Assembly (NCBI RefSeq): GCF_013409345.1
Contig: NZ_JACCBB010000001.1
Span: 3,472,001 to 3,536,000 of the forward strand
DNA from: Kineococcus aurantiacus
GTDB taxonomy: Bacteria > Actinomycetota > Actinomycetes > Actinomycetales > Kineococcaceae
Length of the DNA: 64,000 nucleotides
Direction: 5' to 3'
Shown one piece after another: positions 8,723 through 44,963 of this stretch (position 1 is the stretch's first letter; each line of letters opens with the position of its first letter). Both the position numbers and the translations under genes were made by a program. The notes under the pieces are model-generated. The model did not search any database. It was given only the letters and a program-made list of their open reading frames with translations, and was not told where the DNA came from.

Positions 8723-9076
8723 ATGCTCAACGGTTCGCGCCGCCTCGACGGCGCGCACGAGGACGGCGTGCACGTGGACGGTGTGCACGTCGACGGCGTG
8801 CACCAGGACGTCGACGTGGAGGCCCTGCAGGCCGAGGTGGAGCAGCTGCGGACGGCGCTGACGCGCCGCCCCGTCATCGACATGGCCAAGGGCGCGATCA
8901 TGGCGCTGCTGCGCTGCGACGAGGACACCGCCTTCCGGCAGCTGTCCGAGGTCTCCCAGCGGCACAACGTCAAGCTCTACGACCTGGCCTCGGCCCTGCT
9001 GGGCGACCTGCGCAGCGCCGAACCGGGGACCGGGCCGGTCGACCGCCTCGTCCAGCGGAACTGGACGAGGCGGTGA
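8723..9076 (+). CDS. small ANTAR-domain protein
   Basis: A 117-residue protein. After a short repeat-containing N-terminus (three DGVH units, residues about 14-28) and a coiled-coil stretch VEALQAEVEQLRTAL, it has an ANTAR RNA-binding domain: VIDMAKGAIMALLRCDEDTAFRQL followed by an SEVSQRHNVKLYDLASALL helix. ANTAR proteins bind paired RNA hairpins and relieve transcription termination. There is no receiver or GAF domain here, so input must come by dimerisation or from a partner. It is convergent with the GAF-ANTAR gene, with only 4 bp between their stops. The start ATG has GGAGGA about 10 nt upstream. Confidence 0.82.
   Translation: MLNGSRRLDGAHEDGVHVDGVHVDGVHQDVDVEALQAEVEQLRTALTRRPVIDMAKGAIMALLRCDEDTAFRQLSEVSQRHNVKLYDLASALLGDLRSAEPGTGPVDRLVQRNWTRR
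8762..8806 (+). repeat. three tandem 15-bp units in the ANTAR gene
   Basis: The unit is GACGGYGTGCACGTS, repeated three times in frame and encoding DGVHV. The third copy ends in CAG. Being a multiple of three, copy-number changes would alter only the length of the N-terminal linker. Confidence 0.8.
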
Positions 9077-9080
9077 ACCC

Positions 9081-9803
9081 CTACGCCTGCCCCGCCGGGA
9101 CCTCTCCGAGCTGGGCGACGACCTCGCTCGCCACGTCCCGCAACCGCCGCCGCTGAGCCCGGGCCCGGGTGCGCAGCTGCGTGAAGGCGTCGTCCGGGTG
9201 GACCCGGTGACGTTCGGCCAGCACGCCCTTCGCCTGCTCCAGCACGACCCGGCTGTCGAGGGCCTCCTGCAGCTGGTCGCGCAGCCGGTCGCCCTCGGCG
9301 CCGGCCACCAGCTGGCCGATGCCCACGGCGCCGAACGAGGCCATGGCGTGCGCCACGTCCGTCTCCACCGCCGAGAACGGGCCCTCGCGGTCCCGGAACA
9401 GGTTCAGGGCACCGACCGTGCGGCCCAGCACCTGCACGGGCAGGGTGTGCACGGAGACGATGCCCTGCGAGATCGCCTTCGCGGCGAACCGCGGCCACCG
9501 CGCGGTCAGCTCCGCCGCGGTCGAGGCCGCCGTCGGGGTGGCGTCGCGGTAGCAGTCCAGGCACGGGCCCTCGTCGTTCTGCAGCTGGAACAGCTCCACG
9601 ACGACCGCCTCGCTGGAACTGGCCGCCAGCAGGCTCAACCGTCCCGCGGCGTCCTCCACCAGGAACCCGACCGCGCTCGCGGACACCAGGTCCGCCGTGT
9701 GGTGCACCAGCCGGTGCGCCAGGTCCAGGGGCTCACCGCGCTGGGCCAGCACCCCCGCCACGTCGGCCACCGCCGCCGCGACCGCGTCCGCACGAACGTC
9801 CAC
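9081..9803 (-). CDS. GAF-ANTAR transcription antiterminator
   Basis: A 240-residue sensory RNA-binding protein. Residues about 20-165 form a GAF domain, including the actinobacterial signature NDEGPCLDCYRD and the HTLPVQVLGRTVGALNLF strand-turn. Residues about 180-235 form an ANTAR domain (LQEALDSRVVLEQAKGVLAERHRVHPDDAF). The GAF domain would sense a small molecule or redox state, and the ANTAR domain would bind tandem hairpins in target RNAs. The target RNA is not evident here. Its 3' end nearly meets the small ANTAR gene. Confidence 0.88.
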   Translation of the reverse strand: MDVRADAVAAAVADVAGVLAQRGEPLDLAHRLVHHTADLVSASAVGFLVEDAAGRLSLLAASSSEAVVVELFQLQNDEGPCLDCYRDATPTAASTAAELTARWPRFAAKAISQGIVSVHTLPVQVLGRTVGALNLFRDREGPFSAVETDVAHAMASFGAVGIGQLVAGAEGDRLRDQLQEALDSRVVLEQAKGVLAERHRVHPDDAFTQLRTRARAQRRRLRDVASEVVAQLGEVPAGQA

Positions 9804-10346: not shown

Positions 10347-10955
10347 TTGCCCCAGACGCCCGCGCCCCGGCGTGACCCGGACGGTGCGCTCGCGCGGTTG
10401 CGCGCGGCGACGGCCCGGGCCCACCACGACCTCGACGCCTCCCTCGCCGTCGTGGACCGTCCCTGGGACCGGACCCGGCACCGCCGCTGGCTGGAGCTGA
10501 CGTGGGGGCTGCTGGCCCCCCTCGAACGGGCGCTGGCCGCCCAGGCCGCGCACGACCCGGGGGCGCTGGAGGCCACCTCGCGGGCGCGCGCGGACCTGGC
10601 CCTGGCCGACCTGCGCGTCCTGGGCGCCACCGGCGCCGAGCTCGCCGCGCTGCGCGAGTGCCCGGCCGTGCCCGCCGTCGCCGACCGCCCCGCCGCGCTC
10701 GGGGTCCGCTACGTCCTGGACGGCTCGACGCTGGGCGGCAAGCTCATCGCCGCGGCCGCGGTGACCGCCGGCGTGCCCGCGGCCGCCACGACGTCGCTGA
10801 CGGGGCGGGCCGGGACCGGTCGCCGCTGGCGGGAGACGGTGGCGGCGCTCGAGGGCACCGGGCCCGGTGCCCTCCCGGCGGTCGTCGAGGCCGCGCGCGC
10901 CACGTTCGCGGCCTACCGGTCGTGGCTGGCGCCGCTGGCGGAGCCGGTGCCGTGA
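10347..10955 (+). CDS. bphO: biliverdin-forming heme oxygenase of a phytochrome operon
   Basis: A 202-residue all-helical heme oxygenase. It opens heme to biliverdin, the chromophore of the phytochrome encoded next. The family marks are the proximal-His region ATARAHHDLD (His26/27) and the glycine-rich distal segment YVLDGSTLGGKLI. The start is TTG at 10347 with AGGAGG at 10337-10342, a strong and well-spaced site; earlier in-frame starts lack one. Its TGA overlaps the phytochrome GTG, indicating translational coupling. A possible -10 element TAGCGT lies at 10298-10303. Confidence 0.87.
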   Translation: MPQTPAPRRDPDGALARLRAATARAHHDLDASLAVVDRPWDRTRHRRWLELTWGLLAPLERALAAQAAHDPGALEATSRARADLALADLRVLGATGAELAALRECPAVPAVADRPAALGVRYVLDGSTLGGKLIAAAAVTAGVPAAATTSLTGRAGTGRRWRETVAALEGTGPGALPAVVEAARATFAAYRSWLAPLAEPVP

Positions 10956-13219
10956 GCGAGGTCAGCCCGTACGTCCCGGTCTACGGCGAGGTCGACCTCA
11001 CCAACTGCGACCGCGAGCCCATCCACGTGCCGGGGGCGGTCCAGCCGCACGGGTTCCTGCTGGCCGTCGACCGCGGGGACGAGAGGGTCGTCGTGGCCTC
11101 CGGGACCACCGCGGACTTCCTGGGCCGCAGCGCGCAGGAGGTCGTGGGCCGGCCGCTGGCGCAGGTGCTGGGGGACCGGCTGGCGGCCGACGTCCTGGGC
11201 GTGGAGGCCTCCGACGTCCTGTCCGAACCGCTGCGCGCCCGGCTGGAGCCGGCCCCGGGCGCCGGGTCCGACGCCGGGTCCGACGCCGGGACCGAGGTGG
11301 ACGTCGTCGTGCACCTGTCGGGGGAGCGGCTCGTCGTCGAGGTCGAGCCCGTCGACACCTCCCCGGCGGGCGCCCCCGTCTCCTACCGCACCGCGCGGGC
11401 CGCGGTCTCCCGGCTGTCCGAGACCTCCTCGGTCGACCAGCTGTGCCGGCGGCTGGCCCACGAGGTCCGCCGGCTCACCGGGTTCGACCGCGTCATGGTC
11501 TACCGGTTCGACGCCCAGTGGAACGGCGAGGTCGTCGCCGAGGACCGCCGCGAGGACCTCAACGCGTTCCTGGGCCTGCACTACCCGGCCGGCGACATCC
11601 CCGCCCAGGCCCGGCGGCTCTACACGGTGAACTGGACCCGGCTCATCGCCGACGTGTCCTACGTCCCCTCGCGGCTGCACCCCGTGCTGGACCCCGCGAC
11701 GCGGGCGCCCCTGGACCTGTCGTTCTCGGTGCTGCGCAGCGTCTCGCCCATCCACGTGGAGTACCTGCGCAACATGGGCGTCACGGCGTCGATGTCGGTC
11801 TCCCTCGTCCAGGACGGGCAGCTGTGGGGCCTCGTCGCCTGCCACCACTACTCCGGCCCGCACCGCCCGTCCCACGACGTGCGCTCGGCGGCGGAGTTCC
11901 TGGGGCAGACCGCCTCCCAGCTCATCCTCAGCCGCCAGCGCGCCGACGACCGGGAGGACGTCCTGCGCGCCCGGGAGCTGCTGGCCGCCGTGGTCGCCGA
12001 CGTCGCCGGGTCCGGTCGCGAACCGCTGAGCGGTCTGGCCGGCGACGAGCGGCTCCTGGAGCTCGTCGGCGCCGGCGGGGCGGCGCTGTGGGACGGCAGC
12101 CGGCTCCTGACCCTGGGCCGCGTCCCGGGACGGGCCGCGCTGCAGCGCACCGCGGCCGTGCTGGCGCGCGCGGACGGGGCGCCCACGTTCACCGACCACC
12201 TCGCCTCCCTCGCGCCGGGCCTGGCCGAGGTCGAGCGCGAGGCGGCGGGGGCGCTGCGCGTGGGGCTGGGCGCGGACCGGTGGCTGCTGTGGGTGCGCCC
12301 GGAGCAGGAGGAGGTCGTCGACTGGGGCGGGGACCCGCGCAACAAGGAGATCGCCGCCGCCGAGGGGCCCGACGTCCGGCTCAGCCCCCGCAAGAGCTTC
12401 GAGAAGTGGCGCGAGACCGTCCGCGGCCGCAGCACCCCCTGGCAGCGCTGGCACGCCGAGACGGCCGAGCAGCTGCGCAACCAGCTGACCTCCCTCGTCC
12501 TGGGCCGGGCCCGGGACCAGATCGCCATCGCCGAGTCGCTGCAGCGCGCCGTGGTGCTCGACGAGGCGCCGGCGTTCGACGGGCTGCAGGTCCTGGCCCG
12601 GTACCGGCCGGCGGAGGGCTCGCAGCTCGGCGGGGACTGGTGGGACGCCCTGGGGCTGCCCGACGGCCGGGTCGCCGTCGTGGTCGGGGACGTCGCCGGG
12701 CACGGGGTGCACGCGGCGGCCGCCATGGCGCAGCTGCGCACCGCCCTGCGCGCCTACCTGCTGGAGGGCCACGGCCCGGCCGGCTGCCTGGACCGCCTCG
12801 ACGAGCTCGTGGGGACGCTGTCCGGCCCGCGCACGGCCACGGCCGTCGTCGCCGTCGTCGCCCCCGACCGGGCCACGGTGCGCTTCGCCAGCGCCGGTCA
12901 CCCCCCGCCCCTGCTGGCCGCCGGCGGGACGTGCCGGCCGCTGGACGTGCCGTCGCGGCCGCTGCTGGGCGTCGGGGCCGGCCGGGCCACCGACGTCGAC
13001 GTCGACCTGCCGCCGGGCGGTTGCGTCCTGCTGCACAGCGACGGCCTCGTCGAACGCCGCGGCCGGTCCCTGCGGGAGACGACCGGGCTGCTGCGCGCGG
13101 CCGCGGCCCCCGGCCCGGTGGGGGAGGACCTCGGTGCGTTCGTGGAGCACCTCATGACGGTCGTGCCGGGGGCCGAGGGCGACGACACCACCCTCGTCGC
13201 GCTGCGGCGGCGGCCGTGA
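10952..13219 (+). CDS. bacteriophytochrome fused to a PP2C/SpoIIE phosphatase
   Basis: A 755-residue photosensor-phosphatase. A PAS domain carries Cys19 (DLTNCDREPIHVPGAVQPHG), the biliverdin-linking position of bacteriophytochromes. The GAF domain has PAGDIP (Asp215; most relatives have PASDIP) and SPIHVEYLRNMG with His268. The PHY domain tongue has PRKSFEKW (479-486). The output is a SpoIIE-type Ser/Thr phosphatase instead of a histidine kinase: GGDWWDA (Asp562), GDVAGHG (Asp580) and EGDDTT (Asp744-Asp745) supply the metal ligands. A GSDAGSDAG repeat marks a loop in the PAS domain. The likely job is red/far-red control of an anti-anti-sigma partner (inference). Confidence 0.93.
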   Translation: MSEVSPYVPVYGEVDLTNCDREPIHVPGAVQPHGFLLAVDRGDERVVVASGTTADFLGRSAQEVVGRPLAQVLGDRLAADVLGVEASDVLSEPLRARLEPAPGAGSDAGSDAGTEVDVVVHLSGERLVVEVEPVDTSPAGAPVSYRTARAAVSRLSETSSVDQLCRRLAHEVRRLTGFDRVMVYRFDAQWNGEVVAEDRREDLNAFLGLHYPAGDIPAQARRLYTVNWTRLIADVSYVPSRLHPVLDPATRAPLDLSFSVLRSVSPIHVEYLRNMGVTASMSVSLVQDGQLWGLVACHHYSGPHRPSHDVRSAAEFLGQTASQLILSRQRADDREDVLRARELLAAVVADVAGSGREPLSGLAGDERLLELVGAGGAALWDGSRLLTLGRVPGRAALQRTAAVLARADGAPTFTDHLASLAPGLAEVEREAAGALRVGLGADRWLLWVRPEQEEVVDWGGDPRNKEIAAAEGPDVRLSPRKSFEKWRETVRGRSTPWQRWHAETAEQLRNQLTSLVLGRARDQIAIAESLQRAVVLDEAPAFDGLQVLARYRPAEGSQLGGDWWDALGLPDGRVAVVVGDVAGHGVHAAAAMAQLRTALRAYLLEGHGPAGCLDRLDELVGTLSGPRTATAVVAVVAPDRATVRFASAGHPPPLLAAGGTCRPLDVPSRPLLGVGAGRATDVDVDLPPGGCVLLHSDGLVERRGRSLRETTGLLRAAAAPGPVGEDLGAFVEHLMTVVPGAEGDDTTLVALRRRP

Positions 13220-14235
13220 ACGGCGCCGGGCTCGCGCGGGCCTTCCACGTCGAGGTCGTCGCCCCGCTGGTGCGGGAGCGGTTCGGGGACGTGCCGCTCG
13301 TGGCCGGGCGCTTCGGCGGCGGCTCCGACGTCCTCGGCCTCGACGACGACGTCTCCACCGACCACGACTGGGGGCTGCGGACGACCCTGCTCGTCCCCGC
13401 CGGGACCGCCGGTGTCGACGAGCACCTGGAGCGCGCCCTGCCGCGGGAGTTCGCCGGGCACCCGGTGCGCTTCGCCACGACGTGGGACCCCGCGGTGCGG
13501 CACCGGGTGGAGGTCGGGACCGTCGAGGGGTTCGTGCGGTCCCGGCTCGGCGTCGGCCCGCGGGAGCGGTGGTCGGTGCCGGACTGGCTGTCGTTCACCG
13601 GCCAGGCCGTCCTCGAGCTCGTCGCCGGTCCCGTCTTCGCCGACGACGAGGGGCGGTGGGCGGCCCTGCGCGACCGGCTGGCCTGGTACCCCGACGACGT
13701 CTGGCGCCACCTCGTGGCCAGCGCGTGGCGGCAGCTGGAGCAGGAGCTGCCGTTCGTCGGCCGCACCGGCTCGCGCGGCGACGACCTGGGCTCGCGGCTG
13801 GTGACCGCCCGGCTGGCCGGGGTGGCGGTGCAGCTGGGCCTGCTGCTGGACCGCCGCTGGGCCCCGTACGCCAAGTGGGCCGGGACGGTCTTCGCCGCCT
13901 CCCCCAGCGGGCGCGTCCTGCCGGACCTGGCGCGGGCGCTGGGCGCGCAGGACTGGCCCGCGCGCGAGGCCGGGCTGTGCGCCGCGCTGGAAGGGCTCCT
14001 CGCGCGGCAGCGGGAGGTGCTCGGCGGACCGGCCGCCGCGACGCGCCCGTTCCACGACCGGCCGTCCCGGGGGGTCGCGCAGGACGTGGCCGAGGCCGTC
14101 CTCGTCGGGGTCGGCGACCCGGCCGTGCGCGCGCTGCCGCGGGGGGTGGGCGCGCTGGAGCAGTGGTCCGGCGCCGTCGACGTGCTCGTGCGCCCGGACC
14201 TGCGGCGGGTCCTGGCGGCGGGGGTGTGCCGGTGA
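13216..14235 (+). CDS. DUF4037 nucleotidyltransferase-like protein
   Basis: A 339-residue protein whose GTG start overlaps the phytochrome stop by 4 bp. Residues 34-53 read as a nucleotidyltransferase-fold active site: GGGSDVLG, a spacer of three Asp residues, then STDHDWG, where Asp49 and Asp51 form the expected metal-binding pair. The C-terminal two thirds (about 110-310) are helical, with WYPDDVWRHLVASAWRQLEQE and RWAPYAKW, as in DUF4037. The biochemical role of DUF4037 is not known to me. Coupling to a photosensor-phosphatase suggests a regulated nucleotidyl transfer, but that is inference. Confidence 0.75.
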   Translation: MNGAGLARAFHVEVVAPLVRERFGDVPLVAGRFGGGSDVLGLDDDVSTDHDWGLRTTLLVPAGTAGVDEHLERALPREFAGHPVRFATTWDPAVRHRVEVGTVEGFVRSRLGVGPRERWSVPDWLSFTGQAVLELVAGPVFADDEGRWAALRDRLAWYPDDVWRHLVASAWRQLEQELPFVGRTGSRGDDLGSRLVTARLAGVAVQLGLLLDRRWAPYAKWAGTVFAASPSGRVLPDLARALGAQDWPAREAGLCAALEGLLARQREVLGGPAAATRPFHDRPSRGVAQDVAEAVLVGVGDPAVRALPRGVGALEQWSGAVDVLVRPDLRRVLAAGVCR

Positions 14236-14567
14236 GCGCGGCCGAGGACGCCCTGCTGGGGGCCGTGACGCGGGCGGGGGAGACCGTGCTGGTCTCGCTG
14301 CCGCTGACCGGCGGGGTGCTCGGCGGCGGGGGCGCGCTGGCGGTCTCGGCGCTCAGCGTGTGGCTGGCGCAGCCGCAGCTGCTGGGCGGGGCCTCGACGG
14401 CCTCGGTCCCGCGCACCGAGCTGCGCGCGGCGAGCGCGCGGCGGACCCGGTTCGGCGGGCACGTCCTCGAGCTGGAGCTGGGCGGGGGGCGGATCCGGCT
14501 CGGCACGCGCGCCGACGCGGCGGACGTCGAGGAGCTGCTGCGAGTCCTCGACGTGCCCCGCGGGTGA
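14232..14567 (+). CDS. small protein of unknown function, last gene of the phytochrome operon
   Basis: A 111-residue protein translated from GTG at 14232, again overlapping the previous stop by 4 bp. The sequence has alternating strands (ETVLVSLPLTGG, GGALAVSALSVWL, HVLELELGGGRIRLGT) and ends in a helix AADVEELLRVLD. This could be a PH-like or small beta fold, but I do not recognise a family. Its stop abuts the stop of the convergent reductase gene (shared TGATCA). Confidence 0.65.
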   Translation: MSAAEDALLGAVTRAGETVLVSLPLTGGVLGGGGALAVSALSVWLAQPQLLGGASTASVPRTELRAASARRTRFGGHVLELELGGGRIRLGTRADAADVEELLRVLDVPRG

Positions 14568-22526: not shown

Positions 22527-23179
22527 CCGGCCCTGCGAGGAGCACCGCGAGGAGCACCGTGGACGTCGTAGCCCTGGACGTCGTGGCCCTGGACGGGACC
22601 GGCCTGGAGGTCGAGGTCGAGGACCTGCACCACCGGCTGGTGCTGCGCGCCGCGGCCCAGGGGGTGCTCGACGTCGCCTACCGGACCCTCGACTCCCCGG
22701 TCGGGTCGCTGCTGCTGGCGGCCACCGGGGCCGGGGTGGTGCGCGTCGCCTTCGAGCGCCAGGGGCACGACGCGGCCCTGGACGAGCTGGCCCGGCGGGT
22801 CAGCCCCCGGGTCCTGCGGGCACCGGCCCGCCTGGACGCGCTGGCCCGCCAGCTGGAGGAGTACTTCGCGGGCCGGCGGACCGGTTTCGACGTGCCCCTG
22901 GACCTGACGCTGGCCTCGGGGTTCCGGCGCCGGGTGCTGGACGTGCTCGGGGGCATCCCCTTCGGCACGACCCTCAGCTACGCGGGCGTCGCCGGTGGGG
23001 CGGGCAGCCCGCGGGCGGTGCGGGCCGTGGGGACGGCGTGCGCGCGCAACCCGCTGCCGCTCGTCGTGCCCTGCCACCGGGTCGTGCGCAGCGACGGCAG
23101 CCCCGGCGAGTACGCCGGGGGAGCCGCGGCCAAGGGGCGGTTGCTGGAGCTGGAGCGAGCCGCCAGAGTGGGTGCGTGA
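22523..23179 (+). CDS. ogt: methylated-DNA--protein-cysteine methyltransferase
   Basis: A suicide DNA repair protein of 218 residues that removes methyl groups from O6-methylguanine. The active site is VPCHRVV with the acceptor Cys184, preceded by the helix-turn-helix region IPFGTTLSYAGVAGGAGSPRAVRAVGTACARNP (Arg finger) and followed by GEYAGGAAAKGRLLELE. The N-terminal 45 residues, with a VVALDVVALDG repeat, exceed the usual family start and may be an extension or a misplaced start. GTG at 22523 has GGAGGA upstream and overlaps the sigma factor stop. Confidence 0.92.
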   Translation: MTGPARSTARSTVDVVALDVVALDGTGLEVEVEDLHHRLVLRAAAQGVLDVAYRTLDSPVGSLLLAATGAGVVRVAFERQGHDAALDELARRVSPRVLRAPARLDALARQLEEYFAGRRTGFDVPLDLTLASGFRRRVLDVLGGIPFGTTLSYAGVAGGAGSPRAVRAVGTACARNPLPLVVPCHRVVRSDGSPGEYAGGAAAKGRLLELERAARVGA

Positions 23180-23613
23180 ACCGGCTGGACGTCCTCACCC
23201 TCGCCGTCCCCGACGTCGACGTGGCGCGGCGGTTCTACCTCGACGGCCTGGGGCTGCGACCGGTGTTCGACCTGCCCGGCGAGATCGTCTTCCTGCAGCT
23301 GAACCACGGGCTGACCGTGGCCCTGTGGAGCGCCGACGCGCTCGCCGCCGACCTGGGGCAGGAGCCGGGGTCGGTCGTGCCGGGGCAGGGTTTCACCCTG
23401 GCGCAGGTCGTCGACAGCGAGGCGGAGGTCGACGCGGTGACCGCCCGGGCGCGGGCCGCGGGCGCCGACGTCCTGAAACCCCCGCAGCGCGCGGCGTTCG
23501 GCGGGTACCACTCCTACGTGCGCGACCCCGCGGGAGTGCGCTGGGAGATCGCGCACAACCCCGGCCTGACCGTGGACGTCGACGGCACGGTGCACCTGCG
23601 GGCGGTCCCGTGA
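23176..23613 (+). CDS. VOC-family protein
   Basis: A 145-residue glyoxalase-fold protein (LDVLTLAVPDVDVARRFYLDGLGL, then GGYHSYVRDPAGVRWEIAHNP). Its GTG start overlaps the ogt stop by 4 bp, and its stop overlaps the next start, so it belongs to the sigma-ogt operon. It may be a small-molecule binding or detoxifying enzyme; no substrate is evident. Confidence 0.88.
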   Translation: MNRLDVLTLAVPDVDVARRFYLDGLGLRPVFDLPGEIVFLQLNHGLTVALWSADALAADLGQEPGSVVPGQGFTLAQVVDSEAEVDAVTARARAAGADVLKPPQRAAFGGYHSYVRDPAGVRWEIAHNPGLTVDVDGTVHLRAVP

Positions 23614-24146
23614 GGTGGGTCGTCCTGCTGCGCGGGGTGAACGTCAACGGGGTGACGGTCAAGGCGGCCCCGTTGTCGGCCTGCCTGCAGCAGGCGGGGT
23701 TCACCGGTGTCCGGTCGGTGCTGGCCAGCGGGAACGTGACGTTCGAGGCCGAGGACGGCGTCGGCGCCGAGGACGTGCGGGCCCGGGTGGAGCAGGCGCT
23801 GCGGGAGGGTTTCGGCTACGACGCGCGGGTCGTGGTGCTGACCCCGCAGCGGCTCGCCGAGGTCGCCGCGGCCTACCCCTTCGCGCGCGAGGACGAGGTC
23901 CGGCACCCGTACGTGGTGTTCGCCTCCGACCCCGACCGGCTGGCCAAGCTGTTCGGCCGGCACGTGCCGAACGACGTCGAGCAGGTCGAACTGAGCGGCG
24001 ACGTCGTGTACTGGGGCTGCCCCAGGGGTTCCAGCACGGACACGCCCTTCGCGAAGCTGTCGTCCGCGGCGCGCTGGAAACCGGTCGTCACGACGCGGAA
24101 CCTGCGCACCGTCGAGAAGCTGGTCACCGTCGCGGGTGCGGCGTGA
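23610..24146 (+). CDS. DUF1697 protein
   Basis: A 178-residue protein of the DUF1697 family, known by its opening WVVLLRGVNVNG and later SVLASGNVTFEA, YPFAREDE and the C-terminal KLSSAARWKPVVTTRNLRTVEKL. The function is unknown. The GTG start overlaps the VOC stop by 4 bp. Confidence 0.88.
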   Translation: MRWVVLLRGVNVNGVTVKAAPLSACLQQAGFTGVRSVLASGNVTFEAEDGVGAEDVRARVEQALREGFGYDARVVVLTPQRLAEVAAAYPFAREDEVRHPYVVFASDPDRLAKLFGRHVPNDVEQVELSGDVVYWGCPRGSSTDTPFAKLSSAARWKPVVTTRNLRTVEKLVTVAGAA

Positions 24147-24709
24147 GCGGCGCGAGCGGCGTGGAGGACCCCGAGGGCCCCTACCGGGCGCTGCGGAACG
24201 AGACGCCGACCGAGCGGCTGGACCGGAACTGGGCCGAGCTGCTGCAGGAACTGCGGGTCGTGCAGACGGGCGTCCAGCTGCTCACGGGTTTCCTGCTGAC
24301 CCTGCCGTTCCAGTCCCGCTTCGAGCAGCTCGACCGGTACCAGGTGCGGGTCTACGTCGCGGTCCTGCTCCTGGCGGTGACCGCCGTCGTGCTGTTCGTC
24401 GCGCCCGTGGGGTACCACCGGGCGTTGTTCCAGCAGCGGTCCAAGGCCCGGCTGGTGGCGGCGGGGTCGGCGTTCGCCAAGGCGGGGCTCGTGACCGTCG
24501 GGCTCACCGTCTCCGGCGGCGTGCTGCTCGTGATCGACGTGGTCGGCGGGCGCACCGCCGGCTGGACGGCCGGCGGCGCGGTCGCGGCGCTGATCCTCGT
24601 GTGCTGGTACGTCCTGCCCCGCCGGGCGCGGCGGCTGGCGGTGCGGGCCCGCCAGGAGGGTCAGGCCAGCGCCGCCGAGAGGTCCGGCACGAGCCGGGAG
24701 ACCCCGTAG
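24143..24709 (+). CDS. DUF6328 family membrane protein
   Basis: A 188-residue membrane protein with about four hydrophobic segments (LLTGFLLTLPFQSRF, VYVAVLLLAVTAVVLFVAPVG, GLVTVGLTVSGGVLLVIDVV, AVAALILVCWYVL). It is preceded by the family signature ERLDRNWAELLQELRVVQTGVQ, which fits DUF6328. The function is unknown. It is the last gene of the five-gene overlapping operon that starts with the sigma factor. Confidence 0.83.
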   Translation: MSGASGVEDPEGPYRALRNETPTERLDRNWAELLQELRVVQTGVQLLTGFLLTLPFQSRFEQLDRYQVRVYVAVLLLAVTAVVLFVAPVGYHRALFQQRSKARLVAAGSAFAKAGLVTVGLTVSGGVLLVIDVVGGRTAGWTAGGAVAALILVCWYVLPRRARRLAVRARQEGQASAAERSGTSRETP

Positions 24710-38193: not shown

Positions 38194-41100
38194 GTGCTCC
38201 ACGTCCACCGCTCCGCCTCCGCCGCGGCCCTCGTCGACGGCCTGGCCGGGGTCCTGGGCGAACCCGCCCGCGGCGCCGACCCGTTCACCCCCGACGTCCT
38301 GGCGGTGGGCGCGCGCGGCACCGAGCGCTGGATCGCCCAGCGCCTGTCCCACCACCTCGGCGCCGGGCCCGGCGGGGACGACGGCGTCTGCGCCCGCGTC
38401 GAGTTCCCCTCCCCGGCCCAGCTGCTGGACACCGTCGTGACCGACGTCCTGGGACGCACCCGCCCGCAGGCCGCCGCGGCCGTGCAGCGGTGGGCGCCCG
38501 ACGCCCTGACCTGGGACGTGCTGGAGGTCCTGGAGGCCATCGCCCCCGCCGACGGCGCCGACCCGGACCGACGACCGGAGTTCGCCGTCCTGCGCCACCA
38601 CCTGCGCACCCCGGCGGGCGAGGACGTCCCCCGGGTGCGGCGCACGGCCGCCGCCTCCCGCCTCGCGCACCTGTTCACCCGCTACGGCGCCGCCCGCCCC
38701 GACCTGCTGACCGCGTGGGCCGCGGGCGGTTCCGACGTCCCCGAGGACCTGCGCTGGCAGCCGGAGGTGTTCCGCGCCGTCCGCGACCACGTCGGCCTGC
38801 CCGCCCCCGCCGAGCTGCTCGACGACGTCTGCGCGGCCCTGCGCGCCGACCCCTCCCTGACGGGCGTGGGGTCGCGGCTGACGGTCTTCGCCGTCACGCG
38901 CCTGGCGCAGGCCCGGCTGCGGGTGCTGGCTGCGCTCGCCGCGCACCGCGAGGTCCACCTCTTCCTCCAGCACCCCAGCCCCGCGCTGTGGTCGCGGACC
39001 GCGCCGCCCGCCGGCCCGCGCCGGGCCGACCACGAGCGCGCCGCCCAGGAGGTCGTGCGGCACCCGCTGCTGCTGTCGCTGTCGCGCGACGTGCGCGAGC
39101 TGCAGGCCCGTCTGCTGCAGGCCGCCCCCGGGTTCGTCGACGTCGCCCACCCCGCGCCGGAACCGCCGCCGACCCTCCTGGGCCGGCTCCAGCGGGCCCT
39201 GGCCGACGACGAGGTCCCCGCCCCGGCGCCGGACCCGGGGGACACCTCCGTGCAGGTGCACGCCTGCCACGGCCGCGCCCGGCAGGTCGAGGTGCTGCGC
39301 GAGGTCGTCCTGGGCCTGCTGGACGACGACCCGAGCCTGCAGCCGCGCGACGTCCTCGTGGTGTGCCCCGACGTCGAGGCGTTCGCCCCGCTCGTCCAGG
39401 CCGTCTTCTCCACCGACTCCCACCCCGGCGGGACGCTGCGCGTCTCCGTCGCCGACCGCTCCGCGCTCCAGACGAACCCGCTGCTCGGGCTCGCGGCCCG
39501 GCTGCTGGACCTGGCCCGGAGCCGGCTGACCGCCACCGAGGTCCTCGACCTGGCCGGGGCCGCCGCCGTCCGGCAGCGCTTCGCCCTCACCGACGAGGAC
39601 CTCGAGCAGCTCCGCGAGTGGACCGTCGACGCCGGGGTGCACTGGGGCCTGTCCGCCGAGCACCGCCGCACCTGGGCGCTGGGGGCCGTCGGCCAGGGCT
39701 CCTGGCGGGCCGGGCTCGACCGGCTGCTCGTCGGCGTCGCCGTCGGCGGCGGGCACGCCGAGGACCTCGTGGGCCCCCCGGGCGCCGAGGTCGTGCCGCT
39801 GGCCGACGTGGAGTCCTCCCGCGTCGACCTCGCCGGCCGCTTCGCCGAGCTCCTGGACCGGCTGGAGGCGGCCGTGACCCGCCTGTCCGGGCGGCGCAGC
39901 GTCTCGGCGTGGTGCGAGGCGCTGCTGGAGGGCGTGCTCGACCTCGCCGACGTCACCCCCGACACCGCCTGGCAGGTCACCCAGCTGCGCCGCGAGCTGG
40001 GTGACGTCGCCACCGACGCCGCCCGCGCGGGCACGGCCGCCGTCGGCCTCGCCGACGTCGCCGCCCTGGTGTCCGAGCGGTTCGCCGGCCGTCCCCAGCG
40101 GGCCAGCTTCCGCACCGGCGCGCTGACGGTGAGCACCCTGACGCCCATGCGCTCGGTCCCGCACCGCGTGGTGTGCCTGCTGGGCATGGACGACGGCGCG
40201 TTCCCGCGGGTCACCAACCCCGACGCCGACGACGTGCTCTCCCGCGACCCGCACCTGGGCGACCGGGACCCGCGCAGCGAGGACCGGCAGGTGCTGCTCG
40301 ACGCCGTCGAGTGCGCGCGCGACGCCCTCGTCGTCACCTACTCCGGCCGCGACGTCCGCACGGGCGCCGAGCTGCCCCCGGCCGTGCCGGTCGGGGAGCT
40401 GCTGGACAGCCTGGAGGCCGCGCACCCGGGGGTGCGGGCCCGCATCGAGGTGCGGCACCCGCTGCAGCCCACCGACCCGCGCAACTTCACCCCCGGGGCG
40501 CTGGGCCGCGCCGGGGCGTTCAGCTACGACCGCAGCGCCTTCGCCGGGGCCGCCACCGGCGCCGCCGAGCCCGCCGCGCCGCCGCCGTTCCTGCCCGCGG
40601 GGCTGCCCCCGGCCCCCGTGGCCGACCTCGACCTCGACCAGCTCGTGCAGTTCTTCCAGCACCCCGCCCGGGGCTTCCTGCGCCAGCGGCTCGACGTCGC
40701 CACCACCACGCGCGAGGAGGAACCCGCCGACGCCCTGCCGGTGGAGCTGGACGCCCTGGCCACCTGGGCCGTCGGCGACCGCGCCCTGAGCGCCCGGCTG
40801 CGGGGGGCCGGCCCGGCCGACGTCGTCCGCCTCGAGACCGCGCGCGGCACCCTGCCGCCGGGGCCCCTGGGCCTCGCCGTGCTGCGCGAGGTCGGGCCCA
40901 CCGTCGACCGCATCGCCGCCGTCGCCGCCGAGTTCGACCGCGGCGCCGACGGGTCGCCGGCCCGCAGCGTCGACCTCGAGCTCGACCTCGACGTGCCCGG
41001 CCACGGCCAGGTCCGGCTCACCGGGAACGTGCGCGGCGTGCGGCCCGTGCGCCCGGGGGGCCTGGCCACCGGCGACGTCGCCGTGACGACCACCTACTCG

Positions 41101-41604
41101 CGGGTCAAGGCCAAGCAGACCGTGCGGGCGTGGGTCGAGCTGCTCGCCCTGTCCGCCGCGCACCCCGGCACCGAGTTCCGCACCGCCGTCGTCGGGCGCG
41201 GGTCGCGGGGCAGCGTGGCGCTGCTCCAGCTCGGCCCCGTGCCCGCCCCCGTGGCCCGCGGCCTGCTCACCGACCTGCTCGCCCTGCGCGCCCACGGCCT
41301 GCGGGCCCCGCTGCCGCTGCCGGTGGAGACCGCGATGGCCTACGCCGTCGCCGCCTGGAACCAGCGGCCCGCCCCCGCCTGCCGCCGCGCCGCCGAGCAG
41401 TCGTGGGTGTCGGGGTACTCCTTCCCCAAGGAGGACGCCGACGAGGAGAACGTCACCGCCTGGGGCGCGGGCGCGGGCGTCGACGTGCTCCTGGACTGGT
41501 CCCCACCACCGGGCTGGCCCGCCACCGCCCCGCAGACCTTCCCCGACGCGGTGCGGCGCTTCTGGGAACCGCTGCTGCGCGCCCAGCGGCTGGAGGAGCG
41601 GTGA
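38194..41604 (+). CDS. recC: exodeoxyribonuclease V gamma subunit (RecC)
   Basis: The 1136-residue RecC subunit, which recognises the regulatory DNA sequence and scaffolds the RecBCD helicase-nuclease. It begins LHVHRSASAAALVDGLAGVL and includes GTERWIAQRLSHHLG, VNVFA-type ADGVC-RVEFPSP, QVHACHGRARQVEVLREVVL, MRSVPHRVVCLLGMDDGAFPR and FSYDRSAF, all typical of RecC. Iron-sulfur or nuclease residues are absent, as expected. TAGACA (38182-38187) lies 6 nt before the GTG. The stop overlaps recB by 4 bp. Confidence 0.93.
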   Translation: MLHVHRSASAAALVDGLAGVLGEPARGADPFTPDVLAVGARGTERWIAQRLSHHLGAGPGGDDGVCARVEFPSPAQLLDTVVTDVLGRTRPQAAAAVQRWAPDALTWDVLEVLEAIAPADGADPDRRPEFAVLRHHLRTPAGEDVPRVRRTAAASRLAHLFTRYGAARPDLLTAWAAGGSDVPEDLRWQPEVFRAVRDHVGLPAPAELLDDVCAALRADPSLTGVGSRLTVFAVTRLAQARLRVLAALAAHREVHLFLQHPSPALWSRTAPPAGPRRADHERAAQEVVRHPLLLSLSRDVRELQARLLQAAPGFVDVAHPAPEPPPTLLGRLQRALADDEVPAPAPDPGDTSVQVHACHGRARQVEVLREVVLGLLDDDPSLQPRDVLVVCPDVEAFAPLVQAVFSTDSHPGGTLRVSVADRSALQTNPLLGLAARLLDLARSRLTATEVLDLAGAAAVRQRFALTDEDLEQLREWTVDAGVHWGLSAEHRRTWALGAVGQGSWRAGLDRLLVGVAVGGGHAEDLVGPPGAEVVPLADVESSRVDLAGRFAELLDRLEAAVTRLSGRRSVSAWCEALLEGVLDLADVTPDTAWQVTQLRRELGDVATDAARAGTAAVGLADVAALVSERFAGRPQRASFRTGALTVSTLTPMRSVPHRVVCLLGMDDGAFPRVTNPDADDVLSRDPHLGDRDPRSEDRQVLLDAVECARDALVVTYSGRDVRTGAELPPAVPVGELLDSLEAAHPGVRARIEVRHPLQPTDPRNFTPGALGRAGAFSYDRSAFAGAATGAAEPAAPPPFLPAGLPPAPVADLDLDQLVQFFQHPARGFLRQRLDVATTTREEEPADALPVELDALATWAVGDRALSARLRGAGPADVVRLETARGTLPPGPLGLAVLREVGPTVDRIAAVAAEFDRGADGSPARSVDLELDLDVPGHGQVRLTGNVRGVRPVRPGGLATGDVAVTTTYSRVKAKQTVRAWVELLALSAAHPGTEFRTAVVGRGSRGSVALLQLGPVPAPVARGLLTDLLALRAHGLRAPLPLPVETAMAYAVAAWNQRPAPACRRAAEQSWVSGYSFPKEDADEENVTAWGAGAGVDVLLDWSPPPGWPATAPQTFPDAVRRFWEPLLRAQRLEER

Positions 41605-44600
41605 GCGCGCACGACTTCGACGTCACCGGGCCGCTGCCGGTGGGCACCACCGTCCTGGAGGCCAGCGCCGGCACCGGCAAGACGTGGACCATCGCGGGCC
41701 TCGTCGCGCGGTACGTCGCCGAGGGCGTCGCGACCGTCGACCAGCTCCTCGTCGTGACCTTCGGCCGGGCCGCCACCGCCGAGCTGCGCGACCGCGTCCG
41801 CGAGCGGCTCGTGCGCACCCGCGACGCCCTCGCCGACCCCGTCGCGGCGCTGGGCTCGCCCGACCCCGTCGTGCGCCACCTCGCCGCCGGCGACGTCGGG
41901 CCGCGCCGCGCCCGGCTCACCGCGGCCCTGGCGGGTTTCGACGCCGCCACCGTCGCGACCATCCACGAGTTCTGCCAGCAGGTCCTGACCAGCCTGGGGA
42001 CGGCCGCCGACGTCGACCCCACGGCCACCCTCGTCGAGGACGTCGACGACCTCGTCGAGGAGGTCTGCGACGACCTGTACGTCCGGTTCGCCGTGCGGCC
42101 CGGCGCGGGCGCGCCGCCGTTCCCGCGGGGCGTGGCGCTGCGGATCGCCCGCGAGGCCGTGGCCCGCCCCGACGCCCGGCTCGAACCGCGCGGCACCGCC
42201 CCCGACACCCCCGAGGACCTGCGGGTGCGGTTCGCCGAGGGCGTGCGCCGCGAGGTCGCCGCCCGCAAGCGCTCCCGCCGGGTCGTGGGCTTCGACGACC
42301 TGCTCACCCGGCTGCGGGACGCCCTGGCCGACGACGTCGCCGGCCCCACGGCCTGCGGCCGCCTGCGCCGCAGGTACTCCGTCGTGCTCGTCGACGAGTT
42401 CCAGGACACCGACGCGGTGCAGTGGCAGATCCTGCGGACCGCCTTCCACGGGCACCGCCCGCTCGTCCTCATCGGCGACCCCAAGCAGGCGATCTACGCC
42501 TTCCGCGGCGCCGACGTCAACGCCTACCTCGACGCCGTGCGCGTCGCCACGACCACCGCGACGCTGGGCACGAACCACCGCAGCGACCCCGCGGTCCTGG
42601 CGGGGACGGCGGCGCTGCTGCGCGGCGCGGCGCTGGGGGACCCGCAGATCGTCGTGCACCCCGTCGAGGGCAGCCACCCGCGGGCCGCCCTCGTCGACGC
42701 CGCCGGCGCGCAGGACCCCGCGCCCGTGCGGCTGCGGGTGCTGCGCCGCGACGGCCTGCCCGTCACCGCCCGCACAGCGGTGCCCGCCGTCACCGACGTG
42801 CGGGCCGCCGTGGCCCGCGACACCGCCGCCCAGGTCGTCGCCGTCCTCGCCGAGGGGCTGACCGTGCGGCCCCACCGCGGCGGCCCCGAGCGGCCCCTGG
42901 CCGCCGGTGACGTCGCCGTGCTCGTGCGCACCGGCGCGCAGGCCGTCGCCGTGCAGGAGGAGCTGCGCCGCCGCGGCGTGCCGTGCGTCCTGTCCCGCGG
43001 GCCCAGCGTCTTCGCGACGCCGGCGGCGCGGGAGTGGCTGTGGCTGCTGGAGGCCGTCGAGCAGCCGCACCGCGCGCCGCGCGTGCGGCGCACGGCGCTG
43101 TCCAGCTTCGTGGGCCGCACCGCCGCCGAGCTGGACGCCGCCGGGGACCGCGCCACCGACGAGCTGTCGGTCCAGCTGCGCGAGTGGGGGACCGTCCTGG
43201 CCGAGCGCGGCGTCTCGGGCGTGTTCGCCACCGTCGCCGAGACCCACCGGCTGGCCCACCGCCTGCTGGGCGTCGACGGCGGCGAGCGGCGCCTGACCGA
43301 CCTGCGGCACATCGCCGAGGTCCTGCACGCCGAGTCGGCGCGCAACCCCGGCGGCGGGGTCTCCAGCCTGCTGTCGTGGCTGCGGGGGCGCGTCGAGGAC
43401 GCCGCCGGCGACGTGGACCGGGAACGGTCGCGGCGCCTGGACACCGACCGGGCCGCCGTGCAGGTCGCGACGGTCCACACCAGCAAGGGCCTGGAGTTCG
43501 AGGTCGTCTGCGTGCCCTTCTGCTGGGACTCCAGCGGCGGCGGGTCCCAGGACCGGCTGCCCGTCGCGCACGCCCCCGACGGCCCGCGCGCCCTGCACGT
43601 CGGGGGGCCCGCGGCGCCCGGCTACGACGCGGCCTGCCGGGCCGCCGACACCGAGGACCTCGGCGAGGACCTGCGGCTGCTCTACGTGGCGCTGACCCGC
43701 GCGGTGTCCCGGCTCCTGGTGTGGTGGGCGCCCAGCACACCCACGCAGCGCGGTGCGCTGCACCGCCTCCTGCTGGCCGAGGACCCCCGGCGGATCCCCG
43801 AGCGGATCGCGCTGCCCACCGACGACGAGCTCGCGGCCCGGCTCGCCGGCCTCTTCCCCGCGGGCTCGCCCGTGGTGGTCGAGGACGTGCCCCTGGACGC
43901 GCCGGTCGTCCGCCGCGCGGCGCAGCCCGCCGCGGTGACCGCGCTGGAGGTGGCGCGGTTCGGGGCCGTCGTGGACACCGGCTGGCGCCGCACGTCGTAC
44001 TCCGGCCTGACCCGCGGCGTCCACGAGGCCCACGGCGCCGGCCCGGCCGTGCTGTCCGAGCCGGAGGCCGGGGTGACCACCGACGAGCCGGACCTGGATC
44101 CGGCCGAGCCCGGCGCCGACGCCGACCCGCTGGGCTGGCGCGAGGTCGTCTCCCCGCTGACCGGCCTGCCCGCCGGCACCGGCTTCGGCACCCTCGTGCA
44201 CGCCGTGCTGGAGGGTTTCGACCCCGCGGTCGCGGACCGTCCCGCGCACCTGGCCGCCCTGGCCCGCGAGCAGTTCGCCCCGCAGCTGGCCGAGCCGCTG
44301 GCCGCCGCGCTGGACCCCGTGCTGCGCACCGGGCTCGGGCCGCTGGCCGCGGACCGGGCGCTGGCGGACTTCCCCGTCGCCGACCGGCTGGCCGAGCTGG
44401 ACTTCGAGCTGCCGCTGGCCGGCGGGGACGGCGCCCCCGCGGACCCGGCGGCCGGTTCGACGCTGGGCGCCGTCGCGGGGCTGCTGCGCCGCCACCTGCC
44501 GGTGACGGACCCGGTGCACCGCTACGCCGACGCGCTGGAGGACCCCGTGCTGGCGGCCGAGGGGCTGCGCGGGTACCTCACCGGCTCCATCGACGCCGTC

Positions 44601-44963
44601 CTGCGCGACGGTGAGCGGTTCCTCGTCGTGGACTACAAGACGAACCGGCTCGCCGGGCCGGGGGAGACCCTCACGGCGTGGCACTACCGGCGCGAGGCCC
44701 TCGACGAGGCCGTCCTGGCGGCCCACTACCCGCTGCAGGCGCTGCTGTACTGCGTCGCGCTGCACCGGTTCCTGCGCTGGCGCCTGCCCGGCTACGACCC
44801 GGCCCGGCACCTGGGCGGCACGCTGTACCTGTTCCTGCGCGGGATGTGCGGCCCCGGCGCCGCCCCCGGCCCCGACGGCGTCCCGCCGGGGGTGTGGTCC
44901 TGGCGACCGCCCGCCGGGCTCGTCGTCGACCTGTCCGAACTGCTCGCCGGGAGGCTGCCGTGA
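41601..44963 (+). CDS. recB: exodeoxyribonuclease V beta subunit (RecB)
   Basis: The 1120-residue 3'-5' helicase and nuclease of RecBCD. Walker A is EASAGTGKTWT (residues 20-30), Walker B/DEXX is VVLVDEFQDTDAVQW, and TNHRSDP and VATVHTSKGLEFEVV are helicase motifs IV-V. The C-terminal nuclease motif FLVVDYKTNRL carries Asp1011 and Lys1013. The gene order recC-recB-recD with 4-bp overlaps implies one transcript and coordinated assembly for double-strand break repair. Confidence 0.95.
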   Translation: MSAHDFDVTGPLPVGTTVLEASAGTGKTWTIAGLVARYVAEGVATVDQLLVVTFGRAATAELRDRVRERLVRTRDALADPVAALGSPDPVVRHLAAGDVGPRRARLTAALAGFDAATVATIHEFCQQVLTSLGTAADVDPTATLVEDVDDLVEEVCDDLYVRFAVRPGAGAPPFPRGVALRIAREAVARPDARLEPRGTAPDTPEDLRVRFAEGVRREVAARKRSRRVVGFDDLLTRLRDALADDVAGPTACGRLRRRYSVVLVDEFQDTDAVQWQILRTAFHGHRPLVLIGDPKQAIYAFRGADVNAYLDAVRVATTTATLGTNHRSDPAVLAGTAALLRGAALGDPQIVVHPVEGSHPRAALVDAAGAQDPAPVRLRVLRRDGLPVTARTAVPAVTDVRAAVARDTAAQVVAVLAEGLTVRPHRGGPERPLAAGDVAVLVRTGAQAVAVQEELRRRGVPCVLSRGPSVFATPAAREWLWLLEAVEQPHRAPRVRRTALSSFVGRTAAELDAAGDRATDELSVQLREWGTVLAERGVSGVFATVAETHRLAHRLLGVDGGERRLTDLRHIAEVLHAESARNPGGGVSSLLSWLRGRVEDAAGDVDRERSRRLDTDRAAVQVATVHTSKGLEFEVVCVPFCWDSSGGGSQDRLPVAHAPDGPRALHVGGPAAPGYDAACRAADTEDLGEDLRLLYVALTRAVSRLLVWWAPSTPTQRGALHRLLLAEDPRRIPERIALPTDDELAARLAGLFPAGSPVVVEDVPLDAPVVRRAAQPAAVTALEVARFGAVVDTGWRRTSYSGLTRGVHEAHGAGPAVLSEPEAGVTTDEPDLDPAEPGADADPLGWREVVSPLTGLPAGTGFGTLVHAVLEGFDPAVADRPAHLAALAREQFAPQLAEPLAAALDPVLRTGLGPLAADRALADFPVADRLAELDFELPLAGGDGAPADPAAGSTLGAVAGLLRRHLPVTDPVHRYADALEDPVLAAEGLRGYLTGSIDAVLRDGERFLVVDYKTNRLAGPGETLTAWHYRREALDEAVLAAHYPLQALLYCVALHRFLRWRLPGYDPARHLGGTLYLFLRGMCGPGAAPGPDGVPPGVWSWRPPAGLVVDLSELLAGRLP

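What the first reader, a model, noticed from the sequence alone, without database searches (positions are those of the whole stretch)
10347..14567. Light-sensing phosphatase operon with a DUF4037 protein
Heme oxygenase, phytochrome-PP2C, DUF4037 and a small protein are joined by three consecutive 4-bp GTGA overlaps. Phytochromes normally end in a histidine kinase; here the output is a SpoIIE phosphatase. The tight coupling suggests that all four products act together, which I do not know as a described system.
Basis: partly seen in the sequence, partly recalled or inferred. Interest (0 to 1): 0.78.

Follow-up and report, generated by a model that had tools for sequence, protein, structure and literature searches.

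The report
Bacterial red-light sensor with chance neighbours
A bacterium carries an ordinary pair of genes that should make a red-light sensor with a phosphatase tail, and the two extra genes behind it look like neighbours rather than working partners.

Summary
BphO-type heme oxygenase, PAS-GAF-PHY-SpoIIE phytochrome, a DUF4037 protein and a 111-aa protein lie at 10347-14567(+), joined by three GTGA overlaps. That all four act together is not supported. The order is complete in 2 of 11 genomes of the genus (Kineococcus). DUF4037 is found in 11 of 11 and the small protein in 10 of 11, including two genomes without BphO or phytochrome matches. Outside the genus DUF4037 and phytochrome co-occur in 5 of 385 genomes (4.2 expected, p=0.41), never as neighbours; 0 of 80 DUF4037 loci show BphO, phytochrome or SpoIIE. 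The same window has another run of three 4-bp overlaps joining a DNA methyltransferase, a glyoxalase, DUF1697 and DUF6328. The BphO-phytochrome pair is real: 8 of 8 BphO hits outside the genus lie directly upstream of a phytochrome, and the 30 best-scoring phytochrome loci all end in SpoIIE, an architecture already in print (PMC9587094). DUF4037 models as an aminoglycoside-nucleotidyltransferase-like protein. The small protein seems restricted to the genus. New member of a known kind; low interest.

The parts
10347..10955 (+). BphO-type heme oxygenase (TTG start behind a GAGGAGGAA ribosome-binding-like stretch)
   Evidence: PF01126 E=1.4e-6, above cut-off; 8 of 8 hits outside the genus directly upstream of a phytochrome match
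10952..13219 (+). Bacteriophytochrome PAS-GAF-PHY with SpoIIE/PPM phosphatase output, 755 aa, Cys19
   Evidence: Pfam; nearest solved structures are BphP photosensory modules for residues 13-521 and Rv1364c for the output; motifs
13216..14235 (+). DUF4037 protein, 339 aa: nucleotidyltransferase-like fold with GS-x(11)-DHD motif; Pfam DUF4037 covers residues 124-221
   Evidence: PF13228 E=1.2e-26; model pLDDT 94.7; Foldseek best match ANT-4'' E=1.3e-4; conservation
14232..14567 (+). Small 111-aa protein, found only in the genus, possibly PH-like
   Evidence: No Pfam family; 2 of 8 relatives scanned hit bPH_3 weakly, below cut-off; 10 of 11 genus genomes and 0 of 286 others sampled; low-confidence model

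Best explanation
The functional unit is the first two genes. BphO would cleave heme to biliverdin (inferred from family and linkage), which would bind Cys19 of the phytochrome (inferred from motif). Red/far-red photoconversion would switch the C-terminal PPM phosphatase, most likely to dephosphorylate an anti-anti-sigma (STAS) protein and so free a sigma factor or other target from an RsbW-like partner (inferred). DUF4037, a protein with an aminoglycoside-nucleotidyltransferase-like fold, and the small protein share the same chromosomal slot. In this lineage they are probably co-transcribed with the sensor (inferred from the overlaps), but they do an independent job.
For: Domain content and motifs DLTNC, DIP, SPIH, PRxSF, GGDWWD, GDVxGHG, SDG, DD in the window protein. 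BphO directly upstream of a phytochrome match in 8 of 8 hits outside the genus, and beside it in 5 of the 9 genus genomes that have BphO. The closest solved relative of the output domain is Rv1364c, E=2.1e-28; that it is a phosphatase-RsbW-STAS fusion is recalled. The own genome has 13 STAS matches (12 over the cut-off) and 37 HATPase_c_2 matches (28 over it). Uncoupling: DUF4037 in 11 of 11 and the small protein in 10 of 11 genomes, both in G006 and G007, which lack BphO and phytochrome matches; all four together only in G000 and G005; co-occurrence at chance outside the genus; 0 of 80 DUF4037 loci with a BphO, phytochrome, SpoIIE or small-protein hit at E<=0.01.
Against: BphO and DUF4037 lie directly next to each other in G001, G003 and G010, without a phytochrome between, and in the same run in G000 and G005; in G001 they overlap by 8 bp. 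So a BphO-DUF4037 link is not wholly dismissed. The gene trees fit vertical descent of one slot for most genomes but disagree on the place of G002 and, in BphO, of G000. Only 7 of the 49 phytochrome-bearing genomes outside the genus gave a BphO hit, with one divergent query. No light, expression or activity data exist here; no STAS or HATPase gene was found among the flanking genes scanned, so the target is unproven.
Confidence: 0.8

Rival explanations
1. A four-component light system: the phytochrome phosphatase controls, or is controlled by, the DUF4037 nucleotidyltransferase-like protein, with the small protein as adaptor or membrane anchor.
For: Three 4-bp overlaps; order shared by G000 and G005, in G005 with overlaps of 8, 4 and 4 bp by the called starts; well-formed nucleotidyltransferase-like model.
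Against: 2 of 11 genus genomes; DUF4037 and the small protein remain where BphO and phytochrome matches are absent; chance co-occurrence and no adjacency outside the genus; such a run of overlaps also joins unrelated genes in the same window.
Confidence: 0.07
2. BphO and DUF4037 form a unit of their own: DUF4037 nucleotidylates a heme- or bilin-related molecule, or a protein of that pathway.
For: Directly adjacent in G001, G003 and G010 without a phytochrome between, with an 8-bp overlap in G001.
Against: Separated in G002, G004, G008 and G009; DUF4037 kept without BphO in G006 and G007; in G003 the frame that starts at the BphO end is not the frame of the DUF4037 body, so that copy may be broken or mis-assembled; no BphO hit in any of 80 DUF4037 loci with up to 7 kb of flank.
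Confidence: 0.06

Closest known systems
Bacteriophytochromes with SpoIIE/PPM-type phosphatase output (named in the legend of Fig. 2 of PMC9587094; passages and section 4 part 1 of 3 seen)
   Same: PAS-GAF-PHY core with the Cys, DIP and PRxSF motifs that paper lists for phytochrome sensors, and a SpoIIE output
   Different: Nothing tested here differs in kind; this copy has PAGDIP where 10 of the other 13 aligned rows have PASDIP
bphO-bphP operons supplying biliverdin (recalled; linkage measured)
   Same: Heme oxygenase directly upstream of the phytochrome
   Different: Output is a phosphatase, not a histidine kinase; two further genes follow in this lineage
Rv1364c (PDB 3ke6), an RsbU-type phosphatase (type recalled)
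   Same: Closest solved relative of the output domain
   Different: Sensor is a phytochrome; no HATPase or STAS domain in the protein
Aminoglycoside nucleotidyltransferases such as ANT-4'' (PDB 6nmk, 6un8), compared with the DUF4037 protein
   Same: Fold by Foldseek; PMC3710099 (one table row seen) puts DUF4037 at the C-termini of aminoglycoside nucleotidyltransferases and related proteins
   Different: 12% identity, modest TM-scores 0.43/0.54, rmsd 7.8; substrate unknown; nothing here shows action on any drug

Membership tests
Bacteriophytochrome | PAS-GAF-PHY domains | tested here: met
   PAS_2 1.1e-16, GAF 2.5e-17, PHY 1.2e-43
Bacteriophytochrome | N-terminal Cys, DIP motif, PRxSF tongue | tested here: met
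   All three present in the window protein; motif list from PMC9587094 section 4
Bacteriophytochrome | Biliverdin binding and photoconversion | not testable with these tools
   Needs protein spectra
SpoIIE/PPM phosphatase | SpoIIE domain with acidic metal-site motifs | tested here: met
   PF07228 3.5e-42; GGDWWD, GDVAGHG, SDG, DD present (their role is recalled)
SpoIIE/PPM phosphatase | Dephosphorylates a STAS partner | not testable with these tools
   13 STAS matches in the genome, none shown to be the target
BphO heme oxygenase | Heme_oxygenase family and linkage to a phytochrome | tested here: met
   PF01126 28.8 bits, cut-off 23; 8 of 8 hits outside the genus directly upstream of a phytochrome match; in the genus 5 of 9
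BphO heme oxygenase | Makes biliverdin from heme | not testable with these tools
   Needs an enzyme assay
ANT-like nucleotidyltransferase (DUF4037 protein) | Nucleotidyltransferase fold | tested here: met
   Foldseek ANT-4'' E=1.3e-4, probability 1.00, TM 0.43/0.54, on a model of pLDDT 94.7
ANT-like nucleotidyltransferase (DUF4037 protein) | GS...DxD active-site motif (recalled) | tested here: inconclusive
   G36, S37 and D49 in 58 of 58 rows, but position 51 is D in 46, E in 1, N in 7 and other in 4 of 58; the window copy has DHD
Four-component light system | Conserved four-gene order | tested here: not met
   2 of 11 genus genomes
Four-component light system | Co-inheritance of DUF4037 with the phytochrome | tested here: not met
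   5 of 385 genomes outside the genus hold both, 4.2 expected, p=0.41, none adjacent

The most novel reading that the evidence does not exclude
In the branch leading to this genome and G005, an ANT-like nucleotidyltransferase and a PH-like protein were captured into a phytochrome phosphatase operon and became light-responsive partners, giving a sensor that joins dephosphorylation to nucleotidylation.
Probability: 0.06. Interest if true: 0.55.

Novelty: new member of a known kind. Interest (0 to 1): 0.2.

Why it matters
It is a clean case in which tight gene overlap in a G+C-rich genome suggests a system that comparison of genomes does not back. The sensor pair is one more example of a putative light-controlled PPM phosphatase, whose target is open. 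DUF4037 gains a confident structural model as an ANT-like nucleotidyltransferase of unknown substrate, in line with an earlier classification (PMC3710099, one table row seen).

Tried and rejected
Rejected: the four-gene system (order, co-occurrence and neighbourhood tests above). Rejected: the overlap run as evidence of joint function. Led nowhere: the DUF4037 profile against solved structures gave only a flavoprotein monooxygenase, E=0.0086; the small-protein profile gave nothing better than E=0.031; BphO gave no match at E<=1; the promoter and terminator scan found 0 sites. Foldseek on the small-protein model gave nothing at E<=0.001; many of the weak matches are titled as PH-domain proteins or known to me to hold PH domains (recalled), but the model has pLDDT 51.5: a hint only. 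Literature: searched for phytochromes with phosphatase or SpoIIE terms, DUF4037, Kineococcus and heme oxygenase; no title listed describes this gene order, but no search combined DUF4037 with phytochrome, only open-licence papers are held, and I opened two (PMC9587094: passages and section 4 part 1; PMC3710099: one passage).

Limits: the output domain was examined in 30 loci, the best-scoring ones, of the 63 matches listed (10 in the family of the window, 20 outside); the rest, mostly weaker, were not examined and may have other outputs. The order-wide samples are 396 genomes and 297, drawn from a larger group, at thresholds E<=1e-20, 1e-30, 1e-6 and 1e-4. BphO was sought with one divergent sequence, so other heme oxygenases are missed. 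Gene calls are home-made. Of 110 DUF4037 relatives only the best 80 were kept; 4 are Kineococcus, and some lie on short contigs. Of the 80, 57 went into the structure alignment: I left out 22 by hand and L177, which holds a stop. The match list was cut. The labels LacI, sugar-ABC, aldo/keto reductase for flanking genes are by eye, not from a family search.

Full report
What is there. The four ORFs and the three GTGA junctions are as described. The first gene is a divergent BphO-type heme oxygenase (PF01126, E=1.4e-6), the second a PAS-GAF-PHY phytochrome with a SpoIIE output, the third carries DUF4037 (E=1.2e-26, residues 124-221), and the fourth has no family. The window is C1:3472001-3536000 of a 5.03-Mb genome. 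Its genus is Kineococcus by inference: contig lengths in four sister genomes (G002, G006, G007, G008) equal those of named Kineococcus records.

The sensor. The photosensory half aligns over residues 13-521 with solved BphP modules (best E=3.3e-115). The output half is closest to Rv1364c among solved structures (E=2.1e-28). The chromophore and catalytic motifs are present; of 14 aligned rows the window copy alone reads PAGDIP in the GAF motif, where 10 of the other 13 read PASDIP. In the sampled order 58 of 396 genomes have a phytochrome match at E<=1e-30. I examined the 30 best-scoring loci, and 30 of 30 carry SpoIIE after the PHY region on the same strand. PMC9587094 (passages and section 4 part 1 seen) already lists SpoIIE/PPM outputs among phytochromes; a passage there also names a Kineococcus phytochrome with a GGDEF-EAL output. 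So the architecture is common here and known.

BphO and the phytochrome belong together. Of 8 BphO hits in 7 genomes outside the genus, all 8 lie directly upstream of a phytochrome match (coordinates). In the other direction, 42 of the 49 phytochrome-bearing genomes outside the genus gave no BphO hit with this one query. In the genus 9 of 11 genomes have BphO and the same 9 have the phytochrome. The two are neighbours in G000, G005, G008, G009 and, in reversed order, G004; apart in G001, G002, G003 and G010.

DUF4037 and the small protein do not depend on it. DUF4037 is in 11 of 11 genus genomes and the small protein in 10 of 11; both are in G006 and G007, which have no BphO match and no phytochrome match. 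In one syntenic slot, marked by a small gene c9 or ANTAR genes on one side and a LacI-like regulator with sugar-ABC-like genes on the other (labels of the latter by eye), the contents differ: BphO-phytochrome-DUF4037-small in G000 and G005; BphO-DUF4037-small in G001 and G003; BphO-DUF4037 in G010; DUF4037-small in G004 and G009; BphO alone in G002; BphO and phytochrome pieces on two contigs in G008. In G001 BphO overlaps DUF4037 by 8 bp without a phytochrome; in G010 a gap of 32 bases separates them by the called starts. In G003 the frame that opens at the end of BphO is not the frame of the DUF4037 body, so that copy may be broken or mis-assembled.

Trees. Seven phytochromes outside the slot form one clade (100/100). 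G000+G005 (99/99) and the slot copy of G008 fall outside it, with their mutual order unresolved; G008 has one copy inside and one outside the clade. The simplest reading is an old duplication or transfer followed by loss of the slot copy, with BphO left behind in some genomes (inference). G001+G003 pair in all four trees; G000+G005 pair in the DUF4037, LacI-like and phytochrome trees, but in the BphO tree G000 sits with G001+G003 (86/88). G002 pairs with G010 for DUF4037 and with G008 for the LacI-like gene, both at 100/100, so DUF4037 has probably moved or been exchanged at least once.

Outside the genus. DUF4037 matches occur in 33 and phytochrome matches in 49 of 385 genomes; 5 have both (4.2 expected, Fisher p=0.41). 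None are neighbours: in four they lie on different contigs, in the fifth (G071) about 113 kb apart. A scan of named genomes gave 110 relatives, of which the best 80 loci were kept, from Actinomycetota, Alphaproteobacteria, Chloroflexota and others by their titles; none had a BphO, phytochrome, SpoIIE or small-protein hit at E<=0.01 within the flank held, up to 7 kb. The small protein was found in 10 of 11 genus genomes and 0 of 286 others.

The overlaps prove little. Another run of three joins MGMT, glyoxalase, DUF1697 and DUF6328.

What DUF4037 is. A 58-row alignment gave a model of pLDDT 94.7, whose best solved matches are aminoglycoside nucleotidyltransferases (ANT-4'' E=1.3e-4; kanamycin nucleotidyltransferase 1.5e-3; LinB 1.8e-3), with modest TM-scores. 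PMC3710099 (one table row seen) groups DUF4037 with the C-terminal domain of such enzymes. G36, S37 and D49 are invariant, D51 is not. Substrate unknown.

How it works, in steps. Shown: domains, motifs, linkage. Inferred: BphO makes biliverdin; the phytochrome binds it at Cys19; light switches the phosphatase; the target is a phosphorylated STAS protein in a partner switch. The genome has 13 STAS and 37 HATPase_c_2 matches, and in G001 a PAS-SpoIIE protein and a HATPase_c_2 protein follow the phytochrome, which fits but does not prove it.

Noticed in passing
window 22559-24709: MGMT, glyoxalase, DUF1697 and DUF6328 genes joined by three consecutive 4-bp overlaps: a control for the value of such runs.
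   Followed up: yes
window 38194-46792: recC-, recB- and recD-like genes by Pfam domains, joined by two 4-bp overlaps.
   Followed up: partly
own genome: 25 matches to the phytochrome protein at E<=1e-20, the listed ones other than itself in the SpoIIE region (list cut), and 37 HATPase_c_2 matches: a large partner-switch repertoire.
   Followed up: no
window 11579-11602, phytochrome residues 210-217: GAF motif reads PAGDIP; 10 of the other 13 aligned rows read PASDIP. May alter the chromophore pocket.
   Followed up: no
L074:6657-11650 and L075:4659-9632: In G001 and G003 the phytochrome is followed by a PAS-SpoIIE protein and a HATPase_c_2 protein (Pfam on the G001 genes, clustering for G003).
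   Followed up: partly
G008: L073, L078, L084 and C52:303378-304889: One genome carries a slot phytochrome (pieces on two contig ends), a second copy in the other clade, and a more distant third phytochrome (42% identity over residues 8-525).
   Followed up: partly
L062:6949-7963(-): DUF4037 of G003: the start-proximal frame and the body frame differ; frameshift or assembly error. Described only.
   Followed up: partly
window 8723-9803: An ANTAR protein and a convergent GAF-ANTAR protein beside the slot, also found in several sister genomes.
   Followed up: no
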